The notes under the pieces are model-generated. The model was not told where the DNA came from. It did not search any database and worked only from the letters and a program-made list of their open reading frames with translations. Shown piece after piece: positions 44,530-50,883 of a DNA stretch of 64,000 nt. This DNA comes from Ferruginibacter sp. (GTDB lineage Bacteria > Bacteroidota > Bacteroidia > Chitinophagales > Chitinophagaceae), in NCBI GenBank assembly GCA_019638525.1, contig JAHBTO010000002.1, forward strand, positions 496,001 through 560,000, written 5' to 3'. Position 1 is the stretch's first letter, and the number at the start of each line of letters is the position of its first letter. Position numbers and translations under genes: made by a program.

Positions 44530-44650
44530 ACCCTCAGATTGCCGCAACTTCTATTTTTTAATTGCTAAATAAATTTTTCTCTCTAACTACAATTTACATT
44601 CATTTACCATTCAAAAAAAATCCTGACAATATTTTTGAAATGAGTGAGCC
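44530..44650. repeat. Dispersed ~100-bp repeat, copy A
   Basis: Core words CTCTCTAACTACAATTTACA and TTCATTTACCATTC are shared with copies B (46741-46832) and C (50761-50862). An A-run plus TCCTGAC corresponds to half of the dnaK terminator stem, and AGTGAGCCA is shared with B. It lies just upstream of the glycosyltransferase start. Confidence 0.8.
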
Positions 44651-46740: not shown

Positions 46741-46832
46741 AATTGTTAAATAGAATTTTCTCTCTAACTACAATTTACATTCATTTAACTTTCAAAAAAA
46801 ATCCCGTCGAATTTTTAAAATTTAGTGAGCCA
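46741..46832. repeat. Dispersed ~100-bp repeat, copy B
   Basis: It shares TCTCTAACTACAATTTACAT and TTCATTTA with copies A and C. Its A-run and TCCCGTC are closer to the dnaK terminator of copy C, and TTTAGTGAGCCA matches copy A. It lies within the 408-bp gap 46649-47056, which contains no gene. Confidence 0.8.
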
Positions 46833-47575: not shown

Positions 47576-47717
47576 GGTATGTAGTTGAAATGTGTAATGT
47601 ATTACTGCTAACGAACAGGGCTTTATGCAGATTGGGAAATAGAATTCCTGTCCACCGGAACTGCTGCCTGGCTTTTTGATAAAGATAAATAATAAGTGCT
47701 AAAGCTAATCTTTATTC

Positions 47718-47754
47718 GTCAAGCCCCACCTTGGCAATACCAATGTTGGGGTAG
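47718..47754 (-). repeat. attC-like site 1, 3' of the nuclease gene
   Basis: In plus orientation GTCAAGCCCCACCTTGG, CAATACC, AATGTTGGGGTAG lies directly past the stop of the 47762-49498 gene. CCCCACCTTGG and CCAATGTTGGGG form an imperfect hairpin. The site aligns with 49685-49723 after the next gene. Confidence 0.6.
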
Positions 47755-47761
47755 CCTTTCA

Positions 47762-49498
47762 TCACTCAAACACAAAGTCTGTTACATCTCCTTTTTTGGT
47801 CTTTGCCAATACTGTGTCTAAGTCACCACGAGGGTCGCCATTCCAATTGAAGTATTTAATTCCACTTGCAAAATGTCGCACCTGCGGTAGTTCTTTTACT
47901 AATGTATGCCATGATAAGTTCCAAATGTTCGGTGTGTCTGTGGTGTGTGGATGTTGCAGAATAATGTCTGGCTTGAATTTTTTGCAAAGTTTTCTAAACT
48001 TCTCAGACGTTTTTCCTTTCCAACTGTCTGCACGTGCTACTGCTTGTCCACGAGGGTTGAATACACTCAAATCGTGGCAACCAAGAATAACCACATTTTG
48101 GTTGTTTAGTTTTAAAAAATGCGAATTAAGGTCGTTGATTTTTACTAAGTCTCTTTTTTGGTTTTCTGTAGGATAAAACTTTCCTGTCCAATTCACTATT
48201 ATCTCTTTGTGTAAATCGTAAACTGCAACCAATTCAATATGATGGTAGTTCCCTGGATTGTGTCCATCAATTCCGATAGTTAAATAGTCGGCAGTTTTTT
48301 GAAGGTTTTTAAAGGTGTTTCGGTTGATGCTTGCTAAAAACTTTTTAATAGTACTTTCTGCTTCTGCTTGAAATGCAGGAATATGTTTTTGCTCTAACTC
48401 TTCAACTTCAATTCCTTTTTGCAAATTTTTCGGAAACTCAAATTTTAAAAATCCACCAGGTGTAACAACAAATTCAAAATGTTGCTTATCATTTGTTATG
48501 GCAACGAATTTCTCAAATACCCTTTCAAGTTTGGAGTAATTCGGTAAGCCATTACTGTAATATTGCTTGCCCGTTACAATCAGCCTTGCAATTTTATGTT
48601 TAGATATCCCTTTGGTGTTACCTGCTCTATAAGCTGAAAATAAATCTTCAAGATGCTGTTCTGCATATGGAGCTTCCCAATCAACATCACCATGTTTTAT
48701 TCTTATTAAAGTGTAGCCATTTTTATATGCTTCTATATCTCTTACAGTATCGTAGTAGGCTCTTCGTTCATCTCTATCAATGGGTGAGTTATCTTTTGCG
48801 TTTATCTTTTGGCAGGCAGAAATCCATGCTTGTTTTGAATAAGACAATTTGATAGATAAAGGATAGCATTCAAGGCAAATTTGTCTGGCTAAACTAAAGT
48901 GCTGGTTTTCGTCGTATTCAATTATAAGCTTTTGATCGTCCAAGACTATGTCACATGCAAGCAGGTAGTTTGGTTTTAGAAAGCCACCTTGGTTTCGGTA
49001 CTTCAAAAGATTGTCTGCTATTTGAGTGTATTCCTTTGGTAAATTATTCGGGTCAGGCGTTTTAAGCCAAGGAAATTTTTTTTCTATCTCTATACAACCA
49101 TAGTGTTTCTGAAGAAGTTTTTGTAAGGCGTTCTTTTGCGAAACGACACTTAACTTTCCGCCTTTAAGGCTCGGTGTTTCCCTACTGGCAACAACAGGTT
49201 GAACATCACCATTTGCTATTTGCTTTGGTGCAATAGTGTTTTTTTTATACTCTACTGTAAACCCAAGTTTTCTGAAAAACTTAGCAGTTTCTTCACCGCC
49301 ATTATAGTCGTCCTTAGAAATCTCTTTCTTATTTGCAATTTTATAGGCAAGTCCACGAATGTGTTTTGCGGGATATTTTTTTTTGTTATGCAGTAGAAAA
49401 GTGTTTTTGGGTTTAGGGTAATTGTCCCTTAGTCTGTCAAACAGTGCAATTGCTTGTAAGACGTCTTTAGATGTTACGTTTTTCCAAAGTTTGCTCAT
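47762..49498 (-). CDS. ScoMcrA-like head domain + PD-(D/E)XK-like nuclease protein
   Basis: The 578-residue protein (ATG at 49498) has three parts. Residues about 8-85 (SKDVLQAIALFDRLRDNYPK, then FLLHNKKKYPAKHIRGLAYK) resemble the ScoMcrA N-terminal head. Residues about 175-275 carry a restriction-like core: CDIVLDD, LIIEYDENQHF (Glu194, Asp196, Gln199, His200), and later YDTVRDIEAYKNGYTLIRIK. Residues about 405-578 form an unfamiliar domain (VVILGCHDLSVFNPRGQAVA and PDIILQHPHTTDTPN). This suggests a DNA-recognising restriction or defence nuclease (inference). The frame is open 57 codons further upstream, but that part is a non-coding leader. Confidence 0.7.
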   Translation of the reverse strand: MSKLWKNVTSKDVLQAIALFDRLRDNYPKPKNTFLLHNKKKYPAKHIRGLAYKIANKKEISKDDYNGGEETAKFFRKLGFTVEYKKNTIAPKQIANGDVQPVVASRETPSLKGGKLSVVSQKNALQKLLQKHYGCIEIEKKFPWLKTPDPNNLPKEYTQIADNLLKYRNQGGFLKPNYLLACDIVLDDQKLIIEYDENQHFSLARQICLECYPLSIKLSYSKQAWISACQKINAKDNSPIDRDERRAYYDTVRDIEAYKNGYTLIRIKHGDVDWEAPYAEQHLEDLFSAYRAGNTKGISKHKIARLIVTGKQYYSNGLPNYSKLERVFEKFVAITNDKQHFEFVVTPGGFLKFEFPKNLQKGIEVEELEQKHIPAFQAEAESTIKKFLASINRNTFKNLQKTADYLTIGIDGHNPGNYHHIELVAVYDLHKEIIVNWTGKFYPTENQKRDLVKINDLNSHFLKLNNQNVVILGCHDLSVFNPRGQAVARADSWKGKTSEKFRKLCKKFKPDIILQHPHTTDTPNIWNLSWHTLVKELPQVRHFASGIKYFNWNGDPRGDLDTVLAKTKKGDVTDFVFE

Positions 49499-49684
49499 GA
49501 TACAGTGTCGCTTTAAGGTTGCCCACCAACGTTCGAGTATTTGCGAAGGCAGGGAATTCATTGTTCGTCCAGCTCGGTACAAATGCCCAATTGAAAATAT
49601 GCGGTTGAAGTTATGAACTATAGTTGAATAATGAACGTCCAGCCGGAATCGCTGCTGATAGTAGCACATAGCTGATGTTACATT
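49499..49684 (-). other. Conserved-looking leader ahead of the nuclease gene
   Basis: The reading frame stays open here, but its product (MCYYQQRFRLDVHYSTIVHN and beyond) is not part of the domain that follows. Parts (CAGCAGCGATTCCGGCTGGA) resemble 47640-47680 after the gene (GGCAGCAGTTCCGGTGGACA in minus orientation). GCCCACCAAC lies at 49521-49530. Best read as a repeated intergenic element. Confidence 0.5.
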
Positions 49685-49723
49685 GTCAAGCCCTGCTTTT
49701 GCAAATACTTTTGTTGGGCGTAG
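49685..49723 (-). repeat. attC-like site 2, 3' of the 49724-50737 gene
   Basis: In plus orientation GTCAAGCCCTGCTTTTGCAA, ATACTTTTGTTGGGCGTAG. It shares GTCAAGCCC, GCAA-TAC, TGTTGGG and GTAG with 47718-47754, including order and spacing. GTTGGGC fits the GTTRRRY core of integron attC sites. Confidence 0.6.
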
Positions 49724-50737
49724 TTATATTTTCACGAGTTGTGTCAAAGCTGCTGTATAATTAACCATTGTCAAAAGTAAATCTTGTACTTTTTCTTTAG
49801 TTACTTTTTTACCTGAGTCGTGTGACAACTCATTCGATAGTCGTATGATTTTGTTCAAAGTTTGTTTCTCATCGTCTGTCTTTATTTTTTTGAGAATATT
49901 TACTAAGTCTCCTAATACAATGTCCGAATAACTATCCTTAAAAATAAAATCTCTCGAATCAATTTCATCGCAAAAAAGGATTTCATAATTCAATTGTCGA
50001 TGATAACAGCATTCTATCTTTAAAACAAATTCAAATATTCTTCTAATGGAATTTGCCTTTTCGCAAAGTTCATCCTCGTCAAGGTCTTGAGTAAGAATTG
50101 ATTTATCAACTTTTTGTATTCTCCGCTTACAATTGTCATAATTATAAAGAAAGAGAATTTTCATAGATAGTCCTGTGTGGCTTGCCGTATCTTTTGGAAT
50201 AATTAATATTGAATAAATTGGCGTATCGTGACTGTAACAATCTTCTATGTAGTTACCTCTGTCAATTTGAAAAAGATTATAAAAGTTTGCTCTGTCTTCT
50301 TTTAAATATTTCGCATTGGGGTCTATTGTTTTAAAATACTTCAAAGTGTCTTTTTCTTTTAAAGCGTAACCTCTTAATGTTATAAATGGAAAATTTTTAA
50401 GTTTTACAATTTTTAGCTCCTTAAAATGAAGCATTAAAGTGCTTATACTTGGCTTGTATTGGGTTTCAGTTACAAAAGAGTTTATGTCATTTGTTCCAGT
50501 ATAGTGATGCCAATTAAAAAACAAAAATTCGTTATCATAGTCAATTGAAAAACTGCCAAAACAATCCCAATTGCCAGCATCCATAAAATCAAATATCACA
50601 AGACCTTTTGTGTCAGCAAGTAGTCTGTTTAAAAACTTGTCTAATAAATGTAAGTCGGTAATTTCAGCAACGCCAAAGTCGTCGAATATTTTCGATATAA
50701 TTTTGCTGCCGTCTCTTACAATGTCCATTTCATTCAT
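49724..50737 (-). CDS. Hypothetical protein, 337 aa, with HEPN-like C-terminal helix
   Basis: I do not recognise a family. The soluble protein begins MNEMDIVRDGSKIISKIFDD. An alpha/beta region with aromatic strands follows (LVIFDFMDAGNWDCFGSFSI, NEFLFFNWHHYTG), then a basic linker and a helical C-terminus. The last 44 residues include IIRLSNELSHDSGKKVT (Asn302, Ser305, His306), an N-x-x-S-H pattern like the helix of HEPN or RloC-type partners. That link is speculative. The gene fills a unit bounded by a 15-bp inverted repeat (49713-49727 and 50746-50760), is the first gene beyond dnaK, and precedes the nuclease gene on the same strand. Confidence 0.65.
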   Translation of the reverse strand: MNEMDIVRDGSKIISKIFDDFGVAEITDLHLLDKFLNRLLADTKGLVIFDFMDAGNWDCFGSFSIDYDNEFLFFNWHHYTGTNDINSFVTETQYKPSISTLMLHFKELKIVKLKNFPFITLRGYALKEKDTLKYFKTIDPNAKYLKEDRANFYNLFQIDRGNYIEDCYSHDTPIYSILIIPKDTASHTGLSMKILFLYNYDNCKRRIQKVDKSILTQDLDEDELCEKANSIRRIFEFVLKIECCYHRQLNYEILFCDEIDSRDFIFKDSYSDIVLGDLVNILKKIKTDDEKQTLNKIIRLSNELSHDSGKKVTKEKVQDLLLTMVNYTAALTQLVKI

Positions 50738-50760: not shown

Positions 50761-50862
50761 TCTCAGATTACCCCAACCTCTACTTTTTAATTACTACATA
50801 AATTTTACTCTCTAACTACAATTTACATTCATTTACCATCCAAAAAAAAATCCCGTCAAAAA
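50761..50862. repeat. Dispersed ~100-bp repeat, copy C, fused to the dnaK terminator
   Basis: It shares CTCTAACTACAATTTACATT and CATTTACCATCC with copies A and B. It starts at the inverted-repeat boundary and ends inside the left arm of the dnaK terminator. Copies A and B keep only that arm. Confidence 0.8.
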
Positions 50863-50883
50863 TTTTTTTTTTTGACAGGATTT
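50848..50883 (-). terminator. dnaK terminator
   Basis: A 15-bp stem with one mismatch (AAATCCCGTCAAAAA / TTTTTGACAGGATTT), 38 bp past the dnaK stop, is followed in the minus direction by GGGATTTTTTTTTGG. Confidence 0.8.

What the first reader, a model, noticed from the sequence alone, without database searches (positions are those of the whole stretch)
47762..50737. Candidate two-gene defence unit: McrA-head/PD-(D/E)XK nuclease plus unknown partner
The 578-aa protein joins a ScoMcrA-like head (seen in modified-DNA-dependent restriction enzymes) to a restriction-type core (CDIVLDD ... EYDENQH) and a C-terminal domain with GCHDLSVFNPRG that I cannot place. An unknown 337-aa protein with an N-x-x-S-H C-terminal helix precedes it on the same strand, and both sit beside dnaK in a repeat-bounded accessory stretch. 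The fold calls are from motif reading; the combination and the defence role are inference. The third domain may be new.
Basis: partly seen in the sequence, partly recalled or inferred. Interest (0 to 1): 0.8.

Follow-up and report, generated by a model that had tools for sequence, protein, structure and literature searches.

The report
Restriction-type nuclease carrying a nitrilase-fold domain
One bacterial gene encodes a protein that joins a small domain shared with the restriction enzyme ScoMcrA, a predicted DNA-cutting domain and a domain predicted to have the fold of nitrilase enzymes; it likely cuts invading phage DNA, and the neighbouring gene is probably an unrelated passenger, not its partner.

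The parts
47762..49498 (-). 578-aa three-domain protein: ScoMcrA-like head, PD-(D/E)XK core, nitrilase-fold C-terminal domain
   Evidence: ORF, 371 homologues, conserved start, AlphaFold2 model mean pLDDT 87.6, pTM 0.62
49235..49498 (-). residues 1-88: ScoMcrA-like head domain
   Evidence: profile A10 of 37 heads hits PDB 5zmm_A residues 4-92, E 5.1e-7
49160..49225 (-). residues 92-113: flexible linker
   Evidence: pLDDT under 50
48620..49147 (-). residues 118-293: Vsr/DUF559-like PD-(D/E)XK core (Pfam DUF7255)
   Evidence: DUF7255 E 1.6e-5, 25 bits, below its 27-bit cut-off; PF23913 precomputed on 106 of the 120 listed homologues; hhalign to DUF559 E 1.3e-4; Foldseek rows to viral restriction endonucleases with probability 1.00 but E 2.5e-3 to 9.2e-3
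48911..48952 (-). predicted catalytic stretch D183 ... E194-x-D196
   Evidence: invariant in 19 of 19 aligned cores; census of 111 rows
47765..48604 (-). residues 299-578: nitrilase-fold domain
48455..48457 (-). G348, at the place of the nitrilase catalytic Glu
   Evidence: Gly in 175 of 176 rows with a letter, Ala in 1; place assigned from strand order and from non-significant profile alignments, not from a superposition
48179..48181 (-). K440, at the place of the nitrilase catalytic Lys
   Evidence: K in 172 of 172 rows with a letter
48077..48079 (-). C474, at the place of the nitrilase nucleophile (GCHD)
   Evidence: C in 172 of 172 rows with a letter; Ser in one archaeal locus, L028, i.e. 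C in 28 of 29 in the locus alignment
47945..47953 (-). H516-P517-H518 motif, absent from the canonical nitrilases aligned in A6
   Evidence: 171, 172 and 172 of 172 rows with a letter; 29 of 29; compare
49499..49723 (.). 225-nt dispersed repeat between the two genes, cassette-site-like
   Evidence: 10 matches in the own genome, this one included; 19 of 40 genus genomes, the own included; terminal inverted repeat
49724..50737 (-). 337-aa neighbour: unplaced N-terminal part plus HEPN-like C-terminal domain; judged not part of the system
49727..50185 (-). residues 185-337 of the neighbour: HEPN-like helical domain

Best explanation
The 578-aa protein is predicted to be a single-gene restriction factor that would cut foreign DNA with its PD-(D/E)XK core once its nitrilase-fold domain has, in my inference, recognised or acted on an amide- or nitrile-bearing group, the ScoMcrA-like head probably helping it to find or hold DNA. 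Shown by computation: the head homology, the conserved PD-(D/E)XK residues, a predicted nitrilase fold with invariant Lys and Cys and a missing catalytic Glu, the shuffling of the three modules, and nitrilase-fold genes lying next to separate DNA-nuclease genes in a few loci. Inferred: DNA cleavage, the trigger, the coupling between the nitrilase-fold domain and the nuclease, and the phage-defence role. The 337-aa HEPN-like neighbour is most likely a separate acquired gene.
Against: No sequence-profile support for nitrilase homology: hhalign E 0.2-0.67 against canonical nitrilases, no Pfam CN_hydrolase match to the window protein at E <= 1 nor to six divergent members at E <= 0.1. The catalytic Glu is missing, so hydrolysis may be lost; L028 has Ser for Cys, L024 and L025 Asn for H475. 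pTM is only 0.62 and domain placement is unknown. The head's function is unknown even in ScoMcrA (PMC6224610). 8 of 10 neighbours scanned one by one had no PADLOC hit; the PADLOC tally counts models, not genes, and its control is one genome. 20 of 176 homologues have head and C-term but no core, 45 the C-term alone, so the C-terminal domain does not need this nuclease; in 26 of 29 such loci no core gene was found. Fold support for the core is indirect: restriction-endonuclease rows have E above 0.001 and no printed range. No match in 72,556 plasmid or 50,697 phage records. Metabolic genes also neighbour some loci.
Confidence: 0.5

Rival explanations
1. The nitrilase-fold domain is the effector: once triggered it hydrolyses an essential amide-bearing metabolite and stops the cell, as proposed for the RT-nitrilase DRT1, and the nuclease or head is the sensor or regulator.
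For: DRT1 is a phage-defence protein with a nitrilase domain, abortive infection and an unknown substrate (PMC13275509, abstract and passages). 65 of 176 listed homologues carry the C-terminal domain without the core, and its Lys and Cys are invariant in rows with a letter.
Against: The catalytic Glu position is Gly in 175 of 176 rows with a letter, whereas the DRT1 nitrilase is described with a catalytic tetrad. The nuclease core keeps its predicted catalytic residues, which a mere sensor would not need.
Confidence: 0.2
2. The C-terminal domain is a catalytically dead nitrilase scaffold used for dimerisation or DNA holding.
For: Missing Glu; no profile homology to active nitrilases.
Against: K440, C474, D476 and the HPH motif are kept in every row with a letter except one H516, more than a dead scaffold needs; but homologues were found by shared words and loci by GCHDL/HPH patterns, which biases this count upward.
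Confidence: 0.15
3. One reading: the HEPN-like protein and the nuclease act together.
For: Same strand and adjacent; HEPN-like domains are common in toxin and defence proteins (established knowledge; fold rows).
Against: No neighbour homologue in 48 nuclease-family loci, no nuclease module in 6 neighbour-family loci (12 of the 48 loci are under 8 kb). The neighbour family was found in 1 of 395 phylum and 1 of 294 family genomes, the own one each time. The gap is a dispersed repeat.
Confidence: 0.05
4. A Vsr-like DNA-repair endonuclease with a housekeeping role.
For: The core is Vsr/DUF559-like and JGI names some homologues 'very-short-patch-repair endonuclease'.
Against: Sporadic presence, a restriction-type head, and a methyltransferase or other defence-model matches near some relatives.
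Confidence: 0.07

Closest known systems
ScoMcrA (PDB 5zmm, type IV modification-dependent restriction enzyme)
   Same: N-terminal head domain by sequence; modular head-plus-nuclease plan
   Different: No modified-base reader (SBD, SRA) and no HNH matched in the window protein (Pfam at E <= 1); PD-(D/E)XK core and nitrilase-fold domain instead
DRT1 and related RT-nitrilases (class 3 defence-associated reverse transcriptases)
   Same: A nitrilase-fold domain in a multidomain protein of (here presumed) phage defence
   Different: No reverse transcriptase matched; nuclease instead; catalytic Glu replaced by Gly; no direct comparison with a DRT1 sequence was made
DUF7255 (PF23913) and DUF559/Vsr-type PD-(D/E)XK nucleases
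   Same: Core residues and profile match
   Different: Fused to head and nitrilase-fold domain; no paper with the word DUF7255 in the held library
Head + (core) + CN_hydrolase proteins of Clostridia (L014, L017, L043-L045)
   Same: Same head and, in L014 and L017, the same core; nitrilase-fold domain behind them
   Different: Canonical Glu-Lys-Cys and, in the three scanned, a Pfam-recognisable nitrilase, plus a further C-terminal region; no detectable sequence similarity of that domain to the window's

Membership tests
ScoMcrA-like type IV restriction enzyme | ScoMcrA head domain | tested here: met
   E 5.1e-7 to 5zmm_A residues 4-92
ScoMcrA-like type IV restriction enzyme | SBD or SRA modified-base reader and HNH nuclease | tested here: not met
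   Pfam scan at E <= 1 gives no such domain (the 'SRA_like' row, E 0.12, is a ribosome factor); the model's three domains fill the chain
ScoMcrA-like type IV restriction enzyme | Cuts only modified DNA | not testable with these tools
   Needs an enzyme assay
PD-(D/E)XK nuclease, Vsr/DUF559 type | Conserved D ... E-x-D ... H ... R/D catalytic core | tested here: met
   19 of 19 aligned cores; census of 111 rows
PD-(D/E)XK nuclease, Vsr/DUF559 type | Restriction-endonuclease-like fold | tested here: inconclusive
   Five named viral restriction enzyme/endonuclease rows with probability 1.00 but E 2.5e-3 to 9.2e-3, low TM-scores and no printed ranges; hhalign to DUF559 1.3e-4, probability 54, over 31 columns. 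Leans to met; the core was not folded alone
PD-(D/E)XK nuclease, Vsr/DUF559 type | Cleaves DNA | not testable with these tools
   Needs an enzyme assay
Nitrilase (CN hydrolase) superfamily | Nitrilase alpha-beta-beta-alpha fold | tested here: met
Nitrilase (CN hydrolase) superfamily | Catalytic Cys and Lys | tested here: met
   C474 and K440 in 172 of 172 rows with a letter; place assigned by strand order, not by superposition
Nitrilase (CN hydrolase) superfamily | Catalytic Glu | tested here: not met
   Gly 175, Ala 1 of 176 rows with a letter; canonical relatives keep Glu in 12 of 12 and 5 of 5
Nitrilase (CN hydrolase) superfamily | Sequence-profile homology (PF00795) | tested here: not met
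   No match at E <= 1; hhalign E 0.2-0.67. Therefore filed only as nitrilase-fold
Class 3 DRT (RT-nitrilase) | Reverse transcriptase domain | tested here: not met
   No RT in Pfam, PADLOC and NCBIfam scans
HEPN RNase (the 337-aa neighbour) | HEPN helical fold | tested here: met
HEPN RNase (the 337-aa neighbour) | Conserved R-x4-6-H motif | tested here: not met
   H306 invariant in 35 sequences; R299 (R-x6-H in the window) is not conserved, read by eye from the alignment
Integron cassette (the repeat 49499-49723) | attC-type inverted core sites and hairpin; integrase | tested here: inconclusive
   Terminal inverted repeat and fold z -2.3; flank complementarity not above permutation, 1985 of 20000; integrase model matches only below cut-off, as in all 14 controls

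The most novel reading that the evidence does not exclude
The nitrilase-fold domain is a new kind of modified-DNA reader or de-modifier: it binds, and perhaps covalently tests through Cys474, nitrile- or amide-bearing phage bases such as 7-cyano- or 7-amido-7-deazaguanine, and licenses the fused nuclease to cut that DNA. It would be the first restriction enzyme to use a nitrilase fold for target recognition, and a counter to 7-deazaguanine shielding of phage DNA that reads the shield itself.
Probability: 0.12. Interest if true: 0.87.

Novelty: new variant of a known kind. Interest (0 to 1): 0.62.

Why it matters
The 2026 DRT1 paper says that nitrilases are not common in phage defence and leaves the DRT1 nitrilase substrate open (PMC13275509, passages). 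Here is a second architecture, with a nuclease instead of a reverse transcriptase, in loci titled as many phyla, in which the nitrilase fold has lost the textbook Glu but kept Cys and Lys and gained an HPH motif. If it is a defence protein, it makes 'what does a nitrilase fold do in immunity?' testable in a single-gene, 578-aa system with obvious point mutants. It also gives a predicted fold to a domain with 809 homologues at E <= 0.001 that has no Pfam annotation in the 120 rows listed. And it warns that gene adjacency in this genome can come from a dispersed repeat rather than from shared function.

Tried and rejected
Two-gene unit: rejected for lack of co-occurrence and because of the repeat between the genes.

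Sequence proof of nitrilase homology: tried with 14- and 29-sequence profiles and an A3 slice against 12 canonical nitrilases and 5 head-linked CN_hydrolases; none significant. The best local alignments to canonical nitrilases put the first Gly of PGG opposite the Glu, the TGK Lys opposite the Lys and the GCHD Cys opposite the Cys; a hint only. PDB sequence searches with the full-protein, core, C-term and neighbour profiles gave nothing credible. PADLOC, NCBIfam and PHROGs gave no useful match to either gene.

attC proof for the repeat: the flank test failed (permutation 1985 of 20000), and consensus folding showed 2 of 34 pairs with a kept change on both sides; hence 'cassette-like' only. Empty-site test in G301 failed because its contig ends at the repeat. 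PF26345 could not be searched (not in the library), so the head was tested through PDB instead; that PF26345 is the head family is recalled, no call names it. Plasmid and phage collections gave no match. The VIA lists for both models were filled by one domain each, so the core and the neighbour's first 180 residues were barely tested there and no fold is excluded by them.

Limits: loci were collected with patterns that include the GCHDL and HPH motifs and homologues by shared words, 7998 candidates scored each time, so invariance counts are biased upward. The census used the 176 listed homologues (120 of 371 and a further 56 of 809), 178 rows, rows with a gap set aside. The neighbour tally used 145 of 151 candidate genes (6 genes of L046 and L047 dropped for the size limit). 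The control used 135 of 227 genes from 16 stretches of one genome and happens to contain DISARM-like and methyltransferase genes. The model alignment used 82 rows. The flank test used 10 of 11 repeat copies, one missed by the pattern. In the C-term locus alignment L027 lacks the Glu-position region. Some of the 29 loci without a core are fragments at contig ends or split frames (L020, L027, L037, L041, L042, L047, L049).
Full report
Observation. The two genes lie at the stated coordinates on the - strand next to dnaK. The nuclease's conserved start gives 578 aa (47762-49498); the longer 635-aa frame starts inside the repeat 49499-49723. The genome is a 3.4-Mb assembly. G008, which the genome tool puts in the same family, is identical over the 2500 bases compared to a named Flavipsychrobacter MAG locus (Chitinophagaceae, Bacteroidota), so the window is presumably from that family.

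Domain 1, head (residues 1-88). A profile of 37 heads from the window and related loci finds ScoMcrA (5zmm_A, residues 4-92) at E 5.1e-7, the next PDB hit being at 0.2. In the ScoMcrA paper the head is small, flexibly attached and of unknown function, beside SBD, SRA and HNH domains (PMC6224610, passages read). Of 9 head-bearing proteins scanned from related genomes, 6 have MrcB_N (L095, L098), EVE (L084, L101) or HNH (L090, L091) domains; of the other three, L082 showed weak AAA matches, L079 a weak TPR1-like match and L097 nothing.

Domain 2, core (residues about 118-293). 106 of the 120 listed homologues carry Pfam DUF7255; the window's own score is just under the cut-off (25 against 27 bits). 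In 19 aligned cores D183, E194, D196, E197, Q199, H200, R205, R242, R246, D250 and D254 are invariant. Profile comparison with 16 DUF559 domains gives E 1.3e-4 (probability 54, 31 columns), aligning D183, D196 and H200 with DUF559's conserved D, D and H; the same profile against nitrilases gives 0.56. Foldseek of the whole model against viral proteins lists restriction endonucleases, a DUF559 and a DUF2726 protein, but nearly all with E above 0.001 and without aligned ranges. The restriction-type reading is supported by motif and profile; its fold is only indirectly supported.

A further argument comes from domain swapping. In L014 (Candidatus Faecousia) the same head and core are followed by a Pfam CN_hydrolase (E 1.5e-9); in L043 and L045 (Clostridia, Lachnospiraceae) the head is followed directly by one (1.4e-8, 1.6e-13). 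With L017 and L044, aligned but not scanned, these 5 proteins keep Glu, Lys and Cys. Two nitrilase-fold families without detectable mutual similarity thus follow the same head.

Modules and context. Of the 176 listed homologues, 104 have all three modules, 45 only the C-terminal one, 20 head and C-term, 7 core and C-term. Of 48 loci (46 genome; 2 viral) 12 encode all three in one protein, 29 have the C-terminal domain without the core in the same protein, 3 head and core with another C-terminus, and 4 the head without either; in 3 of the 29 a core gene lies beside the C-terminal gene: overlapping in L023, convergent about 60 nt away in L031 and 7 nt away in L036. L009 has an HNH gene 13 nt downstream. 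In L045 a helicase with an HNH-like C-terminus (PDB 4h9d match, E 9e-5) and a 185-aa gene lie directly upstream. In L032 (Archaeoglobus) the C-terminal gene follows, by 1 nt, a protein with AGOG and DUF6884 domains. In L013 a DNA methyltransferase follows the three-domain gene after 151 nt. Among 145 neighbours, the listed PADLOC matches include DrmD, type II methyltransferases and a restriction enzyme, GajB, AbiEi and RT-based models; 396 models are matched against 101 for 135 random own-genome genes. Models are not genes and the control is one genome, so this is only suggestive; 8 of 10 neighbours scanned singly had no PADLOC hit, and metabolic genes are also present.

The gap. The 225 nt between the genes match 10 places of the own genome, this one included, and 19 of 40 genus genomes, the own included. 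In the four copies whose ORFs I listed (window, L127, two in L126) it begins within about 40 nt behind a stop codon. The ends form an inverted repeat, and the + strand folds better than its shuffles (z -2.3; - strand -1.3), as integron attC sites do (established knowledge). Core-site complementarity failed a permutation test and no integron integrase passed its cut-off, so this stays 'cassette-like'. The IntegronFinder 2.0 passages report one complete integron in Bacteroidetes proper, Salinibacter ruber (PMC9024848, passages read).

Mechanism. I commit to a single-gene, type-IV-like restriction factor: the head helps target or hold DNA, the nitrilase-fold domain recognises or acts on an amide- or nitrile-bearing group, and this licenses the PD-(D/E)XK core. 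Basis: the company of head-bearing enzymes, the predicted fold, invariant Lys and Cys, and nitrilase-fold genes sitting beside other DNA nucleases in a few loci. Every functional step is inferred. The main rival is a DRT1-like toxic effector (PMC13275509, abstract and passages read); an RT-nitrilase from P4-like satellites is the other precedent seen (PMC9122126, passages read).

Bolder reading. Phages protect their DNA with 7-cyano-, 7-amido- and other 7-deazaguanines (PMC6884629, abstract read). A nitrilase fold is a natural pocket for a nitrile or amide (inference). That this domain reads or tests such bases is unproven but directly testable.

Novelty. Searches pairing nitrilase with anti-phage/reverse transcriptase, restriction endonuclease/defense island, carbon-nitrogen hydrolase/bacteriophage, nuclease/antiphage and endonuclease domain/immune system, and for DUF7255, listed no title or abstract on a nuclease-nitrilase fusion in the held open library (full texts of the listed papers not read beyond the passages named); subscription papers were not searched.

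Noticed in passing
49499-49723; also C7:1114-1304, C1:559738-559865, C1:84479-84554, C12:62771-62892 of the own genome: A ~220-nt dispersed repeat with a terminal inverted repeat, shortly behind stop codons in the four copies checked (one behind an HNH-nuclease gene), in 19 of 40 genus genomes. It resembles integron attC sites; the flank complementarity test was negative.
   Followed up: partly
44537-44636, 46741-46816, 50766-50866: A ~100-nt repeat upstream of three - strand genes, 84-87% alike; these three were the only own-genome matches among the candidates scored. A same-genus genome (G301) has the dnaK-side copy at a contig end.
   Followed up: partly
47576-47761: The gap downstream of the nuclease begins with a sequence resembling, by eye, the start of the cassette-like repeat, as if decayed; no BLAST match in the stretches compared and no stable fold.
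   Followed up: partly
L014, L017, L043, L044, L045: Clostridial proteins joining the ScoMcrA-like head (with or without the PD-(D/E)XK core) to a CN_hydrolase with intact Glu-Lys-Cys and a further ~200-aa region; a family worth its own study.
   Followed up: partly
L032:51-2259: In Archaeoglobus the lone nitrilase-fold gene follows, by 1 nt, a protein with AGOG DNA-glycosylase and DUF6884 domains, a hint at modified or damaged bases.
   Followed up: no
L050-L055: Distant relatives of the HEPN-like neighbour occur in viral contigs (26-33% identity), one near a sigma-70-like gene (L054) and one beside a topoisomerase gene (L055).
   Followed up: partly
own genome, among L107-L122: The random control genes of the own genome include strong DISARM-like matches (DrmMII 5.5e-167, DrmB 2.2e-78).
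   Followed up: no
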